Shown here: piece by piece, positions 18,973 through 23,773 of the stretch
Position numbering within the stretch: the first letter of the stretch is position 1
Layout: the number at the start of each line of letters is the position of its first letter
Source of the DNA: Bacteroidia bacterium
GTDB lineage: Bacteria > Bacteroidota > Bacteroidia > Cytophagales > Cyclobacteriaceae
Direction of reading: 5' to 3'
DNA length: 64,000 nt
NCBI GenBank assembly: GCA_030425425.1
Contig: JAUIAO010000006.1
Coordinates: 115,188 to 179,187 of the forward strand
Notes under the pieces: model-generated
Database searches by the model: none
Seen by the model: the letters and a program-made list of their open reading frames with translations, nothing else
What the model was told of the DNA's origin: nothing
Translations under genes and position numbers: made by a program

Positions 18973-20472
18973 ATGGCAACTCATAAAATTACCTTTGAGG
19001 AAAAAGAGATAACTACTCACGAAAACGAGCTTGTTTTAGACACATTGCTGAGGAATAACATATCAGTAAAGTTTTCCTGTCGGAATGGCACCTGCATGAC
19101 CTGCATGCTCAAGGTTACTGAAGGCACTCCCACTCCCGTCAGTCAGGCAGGAATTGCTCCTAATCTGAAAGAGAAAAACTATTTCAAGGCTTGTAAATGT
19201 ATACCTTCGGAAGACTTGAAAATTTCGAGACCTGAAGACGAGGACTATCTTTATGAAGCACATATTATCAGCCTTGACAAGCTGGATTCAAGCTCTTTCA
19301 AAATAGTTATAGAATCTTCTGAAGGGTTTGACTTTCACGCAGGGCAGCAAATGAAAGTACGTAGAAAAAGCTATCAAAATGCAGTCCCTTTCACTATTAC
19401 TAGTCTTCCTTATGAACCGTATATGGAGCTTGCATATTATGTGAAAGAGAATAGTGAAGAATTGAAAGCTCTAGAAAAGCTCAAAACAGGTGACAAGATT
19501 TTCGTGAACTCACCATCCGGTAATTTTCATTTTGACCCAAAAGAGGATAAGCCACTTTTAATTCTAACGAAAAATAACACTCTACATATTGTAAAAAGTG
19601 TTGTCAATGAAGCTATTAATCTATGGAGCTATGAAAAAACAATAGAAATCCTGCAAATAGGCAATGAGGATCAATTAGCCTTCGAAGATTTCCATTTGCC
19701 TACTCAGGTTAAGGTAGATTCTATTCCAGAATCTGATTTTTTCAACAACCCTAAGAATTACATTTCAAAATACTTATTACATTCTATCTATCTGGCCCTG
19801 AATGAGAGTAAAAATGAGATAATGCTTAGTACATTCTATTCATTAGGAGCACAATCCATTAGAGTCCTTAATCTATCGCCAAAAGTAGAAATCGAAAGCA
19901 TTTTTGAAACACAGAATTTTCCTCAACCTCCAGCTGAACCCGACCTTGAGCTTTGGGAATACTTGAACGAAAACAACCTGGTGCAAAAGATATTAACAGA
20001 GTTTTATGATATCGTATTCGAAGATGAGCGATTGGGTACGTTCTTTTCTCATGTTACCAAACAGCGATTGATTGAAAAACAATACAATTATCTTTTTGAG
20101 CAATTCACAGGAGAGCCAGTCTACTTTGGTCCAGACATGAGAAACGTTCACCACTGGATGGTGATCTCAGAAGATTTATTTGATTATAGGTCTGGAATTC
20201 TGGAGACTGTAATGCGGCAGAACCATCTTCCAGAAGCATACTTAAAAAAATGGATGGAAATAGAGGAACGAGTAAAAGAAAGAATAGTAAAAAGTAAACC
20301 CTGGAAAAGAATAATTAACAATGAATTGGTTGATCTGGAACAAATAGAAAAAACCAAGCTAGATTTCGGGGGAGTATGTGACAACTGCCACGAAGAAATA
20401 TTACCCGGAGAAGAAGTGATATATCATGTGAGACTAGGAAAAGTTTTTTGCCAAAAATGTCAGGGTCTTTGA
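18973..20472 (+). CDS. 2Fe-2S ferredoxin / FNR-like / truncated-globin / C-terminal zinc-ribbon fusion protein
   Basis: 499 aa; CRNGTCMTC..C (2Fe-2S), FNR-like beta-barrel, FYDIVFEDERLGTFFSHVTKQRL..KQ..YLFEQFTGEPVYFGPDMRNVHHWMVISEDLFDYR (trHb), CDNCHEEI...CQKC. Confidence 0.75.
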   Translation: MATHKITFEEKEITTHENELVLDTLLRNNISVKFSCRNGTCMTCMLKVTEGTPTPVSQAGIAPNLKEKNYFKACKCIPSEDLKISRPEDEDYLYEAHIISLDKLDSSSFKIVIESSEGFDFHAGQQMKVRRKSYQNAVPFTITSLPYEPYMELAYYVKENSEELKALEKLKTGDKIFVNSPSGNFHFDPKEDKPLLILTKNNTLHIVKSVVNEAINLWSYEKTIEILQIGNEDQLAFEDFHLPTQVKVDSIPESDFFNNPKNYISKYLLHSIYLALNESKNEIMLSTFYSLGAQSIRVLNLSPKVEIESIFETQNFPQPPAEPDLELWEYLNENNLVQKILTEFYDIVFEDERLGTFFSHVTKQRLIEKQYNYLFEQFTGEPVYFGPDMRNVHHWMVISEDLFDYRSGILETVMRQNHLPEAYLKKWMEIEERVKERIVKSKPWKRIINNELVDLEQIEKTKLDFGGVCDNCHEEILPGEEVIYHVRLGKVFCQKCQGL

Positions 20473-20687
20473 TAAATATATTAGATATAACCGTAAAGTT
20501 AGCGGTATAATAATATAATTTGCCGGATCATCTGTTATTATTCCCCTTCACCAAATTTAATTGTGCGAAGGACATTAATTTCATCAAATTCACATTAACA
20601 TCTTGTATTAATTGATTGTTTAAAACTTCTGTTATAAATTATCGTAAGACAAGACAACTAGCTTATTTTAACGTAACCTGCTATATT

Positions 20688-21038
20688 ATGAACACCTTAG
20701 AAAAGGCGTGCAAAGACTATGATAGTAACATCAAGACTAATGGTATTTGCGTCATCAACACCAACACTGGAGAAATTGAATTCTCAGAGAGTTTTACAGA
20801 TGAAACCAATCAAATTCTGAACAACAGCCTGTCCTCTGGCAAACTCAAGGATTTTAACAGTCAGTTCAATTCAATTTTCTACAAAAGAGGTTTTCCTTCG
20901 ATTATCAGAATTAAACATGATCATTACAGTGAATTCATCAAATTCTTGGATGTAAACCATATCATGTACTTCATACAAGAAAACACTTCAATCAACTATC
21001 CAAAAATTAAAATACAACTGACCAAACTTGCCGCCTAG
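20688..21038 (+). CDS. Small hypothetical protein, possibly profilin/roadblock-like fold
   Basis: 116 aa from ATG 20688; 'NGICVINTNTGEIEFSESF'; 17 nt upstream of the PP2C gene. Confidence 0.5.
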   Translation: MNTLEKACKDYDSNIKTNGICVINTNTGEIEFSESFTDETNQILNNSLSSGKLKDFNSQFNSIFYKRGFPSIIRIKHDHYSEFIKFLDVNHIMYFIQENTSINYPKIKIQLTKLAA

Positions 21039-21055: not shown

Positions 21056-22228
21056 ATGATTGGAACCGAATCTAACAAGATTTCATATATCTGTAGAGAA
21101 CTGAAAGCCAAGCACCCTGGCATTAAACTCACTATGGCTTATGAATGGAATAAACACATCGAAATCTATCATAATGAAATAGAAGAGGATATAAATTTCA
21201 ATGCTCTACGTATGTTTTGCGTAAAGAATATTGGTCCTAACAGTGAATCAAGCATGGATGAAGAAAGCATCCAGGTAGATTATGATGAATTCGGGACTCT
21301 TGTTTTCTTTAGGTTTGAGCAAAAGCGATGGTTAATCATTGCTACAGACAAAGCTAGTTTTCCGGTTATCAATTTGGCAATAAAGGACTTAGATAAATCA
21401 GCTGTTGAGTTTGACTTGAAGGAGATCGAGGCGAAGGAGATTGAAGAGCTAGAAACTACTCACAATTTTGTGACTACTGACGAAGAGGAGGAAGTACTTC
21501 TGGAAGATCCGAAGCTGATGGCTGCCAGAAGATTACAACTGAGTATCTTACCAGATGTCAAATTGTTGGACAATTATTTCCAAAAGCATTTCTTGTACTT
21601 TCAGCCGGAGGATGTTTTAAGTGGTGACTTCTACTGGATCAAAGATTTTGAAAAAAGTTTATATCTGGTGGTAGCGGATTGTACCGGGCATAGCATGGAG
21701 GGTGCCCTATCTACTATGACAGTCAGCACGATTTTGAACCAAAGAATTGCTGCTGGTAAAAAACCTCAAGAAATTATAGAAGACATCTATGAAGACATCA
21801 AAAAAAGCAGTACTCTGCAAGACGAAGGGTATTCCATAGGTGTAGAATTAGCAATTTGTAGATTTGAGAAGGAATCACACCAGGTAGATATTGTGACAAG
21901 CGGGGTTCCTGTACTATATATCGAGGGTGAAAAACATCATCACCTTCTAAGGATTAAAGGAACACAGGATCCGTCGTATAAGGACTTAAAATTGGATCAT
22001 ATTAATTTATATGCTGAACAAGGACATAAGCTGGTATTATTTACTGATGGCTTATCTGATCAATTTGATAGTAACGACAAGAAAAAATTAGGTAACGCCG
22101 GAGTGAAAAAAATGTTTATGTCGATGAACGGCAACTTTTCTTTCAGTAGATTTATTCAAGACTTAGACGACTGGAGGGGAGCAACTAAACCAATGGATGA
22201 CATTACTGTCATGGCCATAGAAATGTAA
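21056..22228 (+). CDS. SpoIIE/RsbU-type PP2C serine phosphatase with novel N-terminal domain
   Basis: 390 aa; SGDFYWIKDFEKSLYLVVADCTGHSMEGALSTM, LVLFTDGLSDQFD, MDDITVMAIEM. Confidence 0.9.
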   Translation: MIGTESNKISYICRELKAKHPGIKLTMAYEWNKHIEIYHNEIEEDINFNALRMFCVKNIGPNSESSMDEESIQVDYDEFGTLVFFRFEQKRWLIIATDKASFPVINLAIKDLDKSAVEFDLKEIEAKEIEELETTHNFVTTDEEEEVLLEDPKLMAARRLQLSILPDVKLLDNYFQKHFLYFQPEDVLSGDFYWIKDFEKSLYLVVADCTGHSMEGALSTMTVSTILNQRIAAGKKPQEIIEDIYEDIKKSSTLQDEGYSIGVELAICRFEKESHQVDIVTSGVPVLYIEGEKHHHLLRIKGTQDPSYKDLKLDHINLYAEQGHKLVLFTDGLSDQFDSNDKKKLGNAGVKKMFMSMNGNFSFSRFIQDLDDWRGATKPMDDITVMAIEM

Positions 22229-22254: not shown

Positions 22255-22650
22255 ATGGATTTAAAAGAAGCAATCGGCGCAGCAATTAAGGAAGTACCAA
22301 AAGCTGTAGCAGCAGGGGTAGTAGACATGGACTCAGGTATGCTACTAGACATTAAAACTACTTCCAGTCACCCGAATGAGGTTTTTGACCTTTTGGCTGC
22401 CGCTACCAAGGATATGTACGAAGGAGAAAACGTAACCAATGTGGAGAAGATTTTCAAAAAGGCTAGAGGAGTAAAAACAGATGAAAGATATTTTCAGGAG
22501 TTTGTGGTTTTCTCAACAAACCTTGTTCATTACTTCACACGTATTCCTTCAAAACCAGGAACTGTTTTCGCAGTGGTTTGTCAGGGAGATGCGAACGTAG
22601 GTTTGATTTTGGTTAAAGCGAGAGAGATTGCCAGAGCACTCAAATTCTGA
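22255..22650 (+). CDS. Roadblock/LC7-like protein
   Basis: 131 aa; 'VAAGVVDMDSGMLLDIKT' N-terminal pattern, helix, 'GTVFAVVCQGDANVGLILVKAREIARAL' C-terminal pattern. Confidence 0.6.
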   Translation: MDLKEAIGAAIKEVPKAVAAGVVDMDSGMLLDIKTTSSHPNEVFDLLAAATKDMYEGENVTNVEKIFKKARGVKTDERYFQEFVVFSTNLVHYFTRIPSKPGTVFAVVCQGDANVGLILVKAREIARALKF

Positions 22651-23317
22651 TAAGTATACTTATCAAATCACTTGTAGGATCGATGATAAGACTATCCTTG
22701 ATTCTATCAATATTTCGATATATACGAAAAACATCTTAGTTATTATTGGACCAGGAGGGAGTGGGAAATCTACCCTCCTGTCTATTTTTGAAGGGTATTA
22801 CAAAGAACATTGTGAAACTTCGCATAAAACCACACCATTTCCACCAGAGCAGACAGCCACACTAGCCCAGACCTCAAAACTTTCTTATATATTTTCTTAT
22901 TTGCTGTCAGGAGTAGCAGATCCGGAAGTGGCGATTAAGCACTACTGGCAGGGAACAAAGGTGAAAGATCTATTATTAACCAACATAGACACTCCGCCTG
23001 ATGAGCTTCCAGAATGGCTAAAACGTCTTTTCATTATTACTGATTTCATGGTACGTAATGAGGATAAAGAATTCTGGCTATTGGATGAACCCGAACAGCA
23101 AATGGGAGATCACATTCACCATCTTGCAAAACTCCTGATGGAGCAAAAAAAGAATAAAACTATCATCGTGGTAACACACAATATGGCGTTCACAGAGCTC
23201 ATAGCTGACCATGTTTTGTACATACATTATGGTAATCAACGAGCTTTTTTAACTTCTGAAGAGTTCTTTTCTTCTGAAGATGAGCGTATTAAATATATCA
23301 TTAAAATGGGATGCTAA
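22628..23317 (+). CDS. Orphan ABC-type ATPase with atypical signature region
   Basis: 229 aa from TTG 22628, overlapping the previous CDS; Walker A GPGGSGKST, Walker B EFWLLDEP, H-loop VVTHN; no LSGGQ. Confidence 0.8.
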   Translation: MPEHSNSDKYTYQITCRIDDKTILDSINISIYTKNILVIIGPGGSGKSTLLSIFEGYYKEHCETSHKTTPFPPEQTATLAQTSKLSYIFSYLLSGVADPEVAIKHYWQGTKVKDLLLTNIDTPPDELPEWLKRLFIITDFMVRNEDKEFWLLDEPEQQMGDHIHHLAKLLMEQKKNKTIIVVTHNMAFTELIADHVLYIHYGNQRAFLTSEEFFSSEDERIKYIIKMGC

Positions 23318-23773
23318 ATGATCAAAGGATTTAACTGGATACTACCAAACCAATTAGCTGGCTCAGGACGACCAGGGTTATACAATGAGGCTGAGGAAGA
23401 CATTGAGTTTATTCAGGAGTTCGGTTTCAATAAGGTGATCTCTCTTACTGAAGACGCATTGGAACCAATATTTTATGACAATGATTTTGAGGTGATTCAC
23501 TTCCCTATTTCAGACATGTACGTTCCAAGGTTACAACCCACTCAAGAGCTATGCACGCAGTTGAAAAAAGACATTCAGAATGGGCAGTCCATTCTTGTTC
23601 ATTGTAAAGCCGGACTGGGAAGAACCGGAACGATAGAAGCATGTATTCTTGTGGAACTGGGTCATACCGGTGATGATGCCATAGTAGAAGTAAGAAAAAA
23701 GAACTCCTGGGCTATCCAGAACTCTATTCAGGAAGGTTTCATTCGTGATTATCACAAGTTCATTCATAAGTAA
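23318..23773 (+). CDS. Dual-specificity / CDKN3-like protein phosphatase
   Basis: 151 aa; HCKAGLGRTGT (HCX5R) and upstream ISD general acid region; ATG directly abuts the previous stop. Confidence 0.88.
   Translation: MIKGFNWILPNQLAGSGRPGLYNEAEEDIEFIQEFGFNKVISLTEDALEPIFYDNDFEVIHFPISDMYVPRLQPTQELCTQLKKDIQNGQSILVHCKAGLGRTGTIEACILVELGHTGDDAIVEVRKKNSWAIQNSIQEGFIRDYHKFIHK

What the first reader, a model, noticed from the sequence alone, without database searches (positions are those of the whole stretch)
22628..23317. Permease-less ABC ATPase lacking the LSGGQ signature
The protein has a clean Walker A (GPGGSGKST), Q-loop (LAQ), Walker B (EFWLLDEP) and H-loop (VVTHN). Where LSGGQ should precede Walker B the sequence is DELPEWLKRLFIITDFMVRNEDKEFWLLDEP. 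Canonical ABC dimers sandwich ATP between Walker A and the opposing LSGGQ, so this protein may bind ATP but hydrolyse it differently, or act as a regulatory subunit. No membrane protein is encoded in the cassette.
Basis: partly seen in the sequence, partly recalled or inferred. Interest (0 to 1): 0.6.

Follow-up and report, generated by a model that had tools for sequence, protein, structure and literature searches.

The report
Soluble mini-ABC ATPase with Roadblock partner
A bacterial gene cassette encodes a stripped-down relative of transporter ATPases that has lost the part needed for normal ATP-driven pairing, always next to a Roadblock-like protein and two phosphatases, which suggests that a transporter engine has been turned into a soluble signalling switch.

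Summary
The 229-aa protein keeps Walker A, Walker B with the catalytic Glu, and the H-loop His. The helix where LSGGQ should stand reads LPEWL. This is not decay of one copy. Four syntenic orthologues in three other genomes (same genus and family) lack LSGGQ too and have deleted the whole helical subdomain: Walker A to Walker B is 55-57 residues, against 107 here and 111-139 in 28 ordinary ABC ATPases of the same genome. The A-loop aromatic and the D-loop are also lost, while the nucleotide-binding core and a C-terminal MGC are invariant. All five cassettes have the order SpoIIE phosphatase, Roadblock-like protein, ABC-core ATPase, DSP phosphatase; no membrane protein was found in them. Sensors (Fe-S/flavin/globin proteins, PAS histidine kinases) lie beside several. 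Diverged Roadblock-like relatives sit with dynamins and a Ser/Thr kinase, or beside FGE-domain proteins. Best reading: a soluble, conservon-like signalling module in which an ABC-derived ATP switch replaces the Ras-like GTPase and the Roadblock-like protein regulates it. Anatomy and conservation are shown; the biochemistry is inferred. I found no report of such a pair in the library searched.

The parts
22628..23317 (+). ABC-core ATPase without signature motif (229 aa, TTG start overlapping the upstream gene by 23 nt, ends ..YIIKMGC)
22748..22774 (+). Walker A GPGGSGKST (residues 41-49); core invariant in all 5 orthologues
22868..22870 (+). Gln81, candidate Q-loop Gln (assignment uncertain; no clear equivalent in short orthologues)
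22919..23056 (+). remnant helical subdomain (residues 98-143); absent from the four short orthologues
23006..23020 (+). LPEWL (residues 127-131) at the position of LSGGQ
23069..23092 (+). Walker B plus catalytic Glu EFWLLDEP (148-155), followed by a non-canonical D-loop EQQMGD
23168..23182 (+). H-loop VVTHN (181-185)
23306..23314 (+). C-terminal Met-Gly-Cys, invariant in all five orthologues
22255..22650 (+). Roadblock/LC7-like protein (131 aa), the most conserved part of the cassette (64-71% identity to the four orthologues)
21056..22228 (+). SpoIIE/PP2C phosphatase (SiaA-like C-terminal half, metal-binding Asp motifs intact); N-terminal about 110 aa has marginal Roadblock-like similarity (P 2e-4 to 6e-3)
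23318..23773 (+). dual-specificity phosphatase with intact HCKAGLGRT active site; starts on the base after the ATPase stop codon
20616..21038 (+). small ORF upstream (140 aa from the listed TTG), no family found; possible cassette member
18973..20472 (+). 2Fe-2S ferredoxin / flavin-reductase-like / globin fusion protein; homologues adjoin the cassette in L023 (G911) and a Roadblock-like gene in L019 (G855)

Best explanation
The cassette encodes a soluble signal-transduction module built like an actinobacterial conservon, but with an ABC-derived ATPase core in place of the Ras-like GTPase. Shown: the ATPase keeps what is needed to bind nucleotide and polarise the attacking water (Walker A, Walker B Glu, H-loop His) and has lost what ABC proteins use to form the ATP-sandwich dimer (signature, D-loop, A-loop aromatic and, in four of five copies, the whole helical subdomain). 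Shown: it is always coupled to a Roadblock-like protein, a SpoIIE-type phosphatase and a DSP phosphatase, and no permease was found with it. Inferred: the ATPase works as a slow ATP/ADP switch rather than a transport motor. Inferred: the Roadblock-like protein, probably a dimer, binds the face vacated by the helical subdomain and sets the nucleotide state, as MglB/CvnB do for GTPases and as MlaB, a small alpha/beta protein, does when it binds the ABC ATPase MlaF. Inferred: inputs come from the neighbouring redox/gas-sensing ferredoxin-globin protein or PAS histidine kinase, and the two phosphatases reset or transmit phosphorylation of the module or its targets.
For: Syntenic orthologues in G060, G042 (two copies) and G911. 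The signature is absent in all; Walker A-B spacing is 55-57 in four, 107 here, 111-139 in 28 canonical ABC ATPases of the same genome. Walker A, DEP, TH and MGC are invariant in all five. The ATPase-profile search of five genomes places it only in these cassettes, one per orthologous Roadblock-like gene. No TM segments in the tested cassette proteins. Remote Roadblock homology P = 6e-5. Diverged Roadblock-like relatives: in Ruegeria plasmids, in operons with four dynamins and a Ser/Thr kinase; in G855, beside FGE-domain proteins, one with a possible P-loop NTPase region. Globin or H-NOX genes lie near the Roadblock-like gene in several loci. Precedents: MfpD/CvnB is a GAP in conservons (PMC13343842); a globin-Roadblock fusion sensor exists (PMC4476040); the small STAS protein MlaB binds the MlaF ABC ATPase (PMC7367683).
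Against: No biochemical data. The Roadblock assignment is remote; Pfam Robl_LC7 is not reached. Only five cassettes were found in about 1,100 sampled genomes, so co-occurrence rests on few cases. The sensor genes are not adjacent in every copy. The SpoIIE partner looks metal-site degenerate in L008, so the phosphatase step may not be universal. G855 has the Roadblock-like proteins without the ATPase, so the pair is not obligatory on the Roadblock side.
Confidence: 0.5

Rival explanations
1. The ATPase is a catalytically dead or near-dead ABC pseudo-enzyme that serves as an ATP-sensing scaffold for the Roadblock-like protein and the phosphatases; no hydrolysis cycle is needed.
For: Signature, D-loop, A-loop aromatic and clear Q-loop Gln are lost; the sequence outside the P-loop motifs diverges fast (about 24-44% identity).
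Against: The catalytic Glu after Walker B and the H-loop His are invariant in all five copies, which is not expected if hydrolysis were dispensable.
Confidence: 0.25
2. It is the NBD of an ordinary transporter whose permease is encoded elsewhere, with the ABC dimer completed by another, signature-bearing subunit (asymmetric heterodimer).
For: The genome has about 40 ABC_tran matches that score above this one, and heterodimeric NBDs with one degenerate site are common (general knowledge).
Against: Loss of the whole helical subdomain in four copies removes the surface where the permease's coupling helix docks; no TM protein was found in the cassettes; the fixed partners are soluble signalling proteins.
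Confidence: 0.08
3. It is a relative of AAA15/21-type ABC ATPases of defence systems, and the cassette is an anti-phage or conflict system.
For: Weak similarity to PADLOC mad3/AriA models; the DSP protein hits a Pfam family described as a polymorphic-toxin-system phosphatase; patchy distribution; G855 relatives neighbour FGE-domain proteins.
Against: The PADLOC hits cover the general P-loop or Walker B regions; no nuclease, toxin or effector is in any cassette; the other members are signalling phosphatases and sensors.
Confidence: 0.1
4. A sequencing, frameshift or gene-calling artefact, or a decaying pseudogene.
For: TTG start and an overlap with the upstream gene.
Against: Five intact copies, no internal stops, invariant catalytic motifs, 0-12 nt gaps to the DSP gene.
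Confidence: 0.02

Closest known systems
Actinobacterial conservon / G-protein system (CvnA histidine kinase, CvnB Roadblock, CvnC, CvnD Ras-like GTPase)
   Same: Small operon with a Roadblock-like protein, a P-loop NTPase and (in L017/L018) a PAS histidine kinase; soluble signalling logic
   Different: The NTPase is an ABC-type core, not a Ras-like GTPase; no CvnC recognised; two phosphatases instead; different phylum; Roadblock homology is remote
MglA-MglB polarity switch
   Same: Roadblock-fold regulator encoded beside a P-loop NTPase switch
   Different: ABC-type NTPase; the partner is not in Pfam Robl_LC7 by score
MlaF-MlaB (ABC ATPase bound by a small STAS protein)
   Same: An ABC ATPase bound by a small soluble alpha/beta protein; SpoIIE-type phosphatases classically act on STAS proteins
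   Different: MlaF is a full ABC NBD with LSGGQ and a permease; here there is neither, and the partner is Roadblock-like, not STAS
PstB / polar amino-acid transporter NBDs (closest fold and motif matches)
   Same: Walker A, Walker B, H-loop and overall ABC core (Foldseek top hit PstB 9k3s, TM 0.71)
   Different: No LSGGQ, no D-loop, remnant or no helical subdomain, no transporter
Sia system (SiaA PP2C phosphatase, SiaC)
   Same: The SpoIIE protein matches SiaA (70 bits); the own-genome paralogous locus L021 carries a SiaC-family protein
   Different: No SiaB/SiaD or SiaC in the window cassette; the SiaA equivalog cut-off (700 bits) is not met

Membership tests
ABC-type ATPase | Walker A, Walker B + Glu, H-loop in an ABC fold | tested here: met
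   (the fold model used canonical ABC rows, so it is partly circular)
ABC-type ATPase | LSGGQ signature in a helical subdomain | tested here: not met
   LPEWL here; subdomain deleted in four orthologues
ABC-type ATPase | D-loop (SALD) and A-loop aromatic for the sandwich dimer and adenine stacking | tested here: not met
ABC transporter | cognate transmembrane permease in the operon | tested here: not met
   no TM segment in the six window proteins or in the six proteins tested from other cassettes
Roadblock/LC7 | score over the Pfam Robl_LC7 cut-off | tested here: not met
   no hit
Roadblock/LC7 | profile-level homology over the whole domain to authentic Robl_LC7 proteins | tested here: met
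   hhalign P 6e-5, 112 columns; 100 shuffles min P 0.01
Conservon (cvnA-D) | Ras-like GTPase (CvnD) | tested here: not met
   the NTPase in the cassette is ABC-type
Conservon (cvnA-D) | Roadblock protein acts as GAP on the NTPase | not testable with these tools
   needs biochemistry
Sia system | SiaA equivalog score and SiaB/C/D partners | tested here: not met
   70 bits against a cut-off of 700; no SiaC in the window cassette

The most novel reading that the evidence does not exclude
A lineage of ABC ATPases has shed the helical/signature subdomain and become a stand-alone ATP switch regulated by a Roadblock-like dimer: an ATP-based counterpart of the Ras-MglB pair. The window protein preserves an intermediate state (subdomain kept, signature residues lost).
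Probability: 0.45. Interest if true: 0.78.

Novelty: new variant of a known kind. Interest (0 to 1): 0.62.

Why it matters
ABC ATPases are defined by head-to-tail dimers that sandwich ATP between Walker A and LSGGQ. A conserved family that has deleted the signature subdomain yet keeps the catalytic Glu and His would show that the ABC core can work without that dimer. Its fixed Roadblock-like partner would extend the Roadblock-NTPase regulatory principle from GTPases to an ABC ATPase, as predicted in general form when the superfamily was linked to NTPase regulation (Koonin and Aravind 2000, as cited in PMC4316618). It gives small soluble proteins with which to test this directly.

Tried and rejected
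Searching genomes with the ATPase alone found only the window copy at E <= 1e-12 or, in genome contigs, ordinary ABC ATPases, so the conserved Roadblock-like protein was used as the anchor. PF03029 in the own genome gave nothing relevant. Single-sequence AlphaFold of the ATPase failed (pLDDT 35); with nine rows including canonical ABC ATPases it reached pLDDT 76, but that alignment biases it towards the canonical fold and most of the 67-97 region stayed low, so it is used only as support. Viral contigs gave no relatives of the Roadblock-like protein. The small upstream ORFs of L017/L018 and window ORF 20616-21038 were tested as Roadblock-like and gave no significant similarity. A defence-system reading was considered and not favoured. 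A Roadblock tree left most forks unresolved, so the order of helical-subdomain loss is not proven. Literature searches for a Roadblock + ABC ATPase pair returned only unrelated uses of the word 'roadblock' among the papers listed, in the open-access library only.

Full report
WHAT IS THERE. The ORF at 22628-23317 (+) encodes 229 aa from a TTG start that overlaps the end of the preceding gene by 23 nt. Walker A (GPGGSGKST), Walker B with the catalytic Glu (EFWLLDEP) and an H-loop (VVTHN) are present as reported. The protein is an ABC-type ATPase: Pfam ABC_tran 34.2 bits, over its cut-off; its best phmmer hits in PDB are ABC proteins; a profile of five orthologues reaches 8.6e-30 against an ABC-F protein. 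At the signature position it reads LPEWLKRLFII, collinear with LSGGQxQRVAI in two alignments. An AlphaFold model made with canonical ABC rows (pLDDT 76, pTM 0.79) puts helix 129-143 just before the Walker B strand, and Foldseek returns PstB and other NBDs at TM about 0.7. That model is partly circular because the alignment held canonical ABC ATPases.

IT IS CONSERVED, NOT DECAY. Using the well-conserved neighbour (the Roadblock-like protein) as anchor, roughly 1,100 distinct genomes of the class were sampled. Four further cassettes turned up: G060 (L006/L018), G042 twice (L007/L016, L008/L017) and G911, same genus as the window (L023). All have the order SpoIIE phosphatase, Roadblock-like protein, ATPase, DSP phosphatase on one strand, with gaps of -23 to 12 nt between Roadblock-like gene, ATPase and DSP gene. 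The orthologous ATPases are only 171-175 aa. From the end of Walker A to DEP they have 55-57 residues; the window protein has 107; 28 ABC ATPases of the same genome have 111-139. So the short copies have no room for a helical subdomain. Invariant in all five: the G-x-x-GSGKS core, D153-E154-P155, T183-H184 and a C-terminal Met-Gly-Cys. Lost in all five: LSGGQ, the D-loop (SALD) and the A-loop aromatic. A clear Q-loop Gln is missing from the short copies and uncertain in the window. A profile search of G000, G042, G060, G911 and G855 at E <= 1e-18 found this ATPase only inside the five cassettes and not in G855. The Roadblock-like proteins of the four short-ATPase cassettes are 79-91% identical to each other and 64-71% to the window's. 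That fits the window copy branching before the subdomain was lost, but the tree does not resolve it.

THE PARTNERS. The 131-aa Roadblock-like protein is not reached by Pfam Robl_LC7. A profile of 11 homologues aligned by hhalign to authentic Robl_LC7 proteins from the same phylum gives P = 6e-5 over 112 columns; the lowest P in 100 column shuffles was 0.01. I take it as a remote Roadblock-fold protein. The SpoIIE protein has intact metal-binding motifs in the window; in L008 the first motif is degenerate (SGLLLW). Its N-terminal domain has marginal similarity to Roadblock proteins (P 2e-4 to 6e-3). The DSP phosphatase has an intact HCx5R site in all five copies. No cassette protein tested has a transmembrane segment.

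SURROUNDINGS. A 2Fe-2S / flavin-reductase-like / globin protein lies at 18973-20472. A Fer2-globin homologue (46% identity over the globin part) is directly downstream of the DSP gene in L023, and a full-length homologue (31%) adjoins a Roadblock-like gene in L019. L017 and L018 have a PAS histidine kinase upstream. The own-genome Roadblock-like paralogue (L009/L021) sits with H-NOX-like, SiaC-family, response-regulator and SpoIIE genes. In G855 two Roadblock-like genes lack the ATPase and lie beside FGE-domain proteins. In Ruegeria plasmids a 31-33% identical protein lies among four annotated dynamins and a Ser/Thr kinase. P-loop NTPases therefore recur next to this Roadblock-like family, though not always of the same class.

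HOW IT MOST LIKELY WORKS. Shown: nucleotide-binding and catalytic residues kept, dimer-sandwich residues lost, soluble partners fixed, no permease found. Inferred: the ATPase is a nucleotide switch whose state is set by the Roadblock-like protein, with sensing by the ferredoxin-globin or PAS-kinase neighbours and resetting by the phosphatases. Analogies: CvnB/MfpD as GAP in conservons (PMC13343842), a globin-Roadblock fusion (PMC4476040), and MlaB binding to the ABC ATPase MlaF (PMC7367683). The main rival is a non-hydrolysing ATP-sensing scaffold; the invariant Glu and His speak against it. No published report of a Roadblock + ABC ATPase pair was found in the open-access library, which does not hold most subscription journals.

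VERDICT. Observation confirmed; interpretation partly supported and extended. It is a new variant of a known kind (Roadblock-NTPase signalling module) with an unusual ABC-derived NTPase.

Noticed in passing
L024-L026 (Ruegeria plasmids NZ_CP081104, NZ_CP065362, NZ_CP045385), about 2.6-14.2 kb of each locus: A conserved operon of four annotated dynamin-family proteins, a Roadblock-like protein, a hypothetical protein without clear Pfam hits and a Ser/Thr kinase: a possible Roadblock-regulated dynamin system.
   Followed up: partly
L019 8409-10441 and L020 8636-10994 (G855): Roadblock-like genes without the ATPase, each downstream of an FGE-sulfatase-domain protein (DUF6787-FGE in L019; a possible STAND-like NTPase region plus FGE in L020).
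   Followed up: partly
L021 (G000:C70:32000-50000): Own-genome paralogous signalling locus: Roadblock-like + SpoIIE next to H-NOX-like, SiaC-family, response-regulator, histidine-kinase and globin-like genes, downstream of cytochrome oxidase genes.
   Followed up: partly
window 21056-21420 and equivalents in L006, L008, L009: The N-terminal domain of the SpoIIE phosphatases has marginal profile similarity to Roadblock proteins (P 2e-4 to 6e-3), so the cassette may hold more than one Roadblock-fold domain.
   Followed up: partly
window 23306-23314; L006, L007, L008, L023 ATPase C-termini: Invariant C-terminal Met-Gly-Cys in otherwise fast-diverging ATPases; a C-terminal Cys could be redox-active, modified or part of an interface.
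   Followed up: no
L008/L017 SpoIIE (L017 2454-3665): SpoIIE phosphatase with degenerate metal-binding motif (GDF to GLL), possibly a pseudophosphatase.
   Followed up: no
window 20616-21038; L017 2165-2461; L018 9619-9927: Small ORFs upstream of SpoIIE with no recognised family (the L017 and L018 ones resemble each other at the C-terminus).
   Followed up: partly
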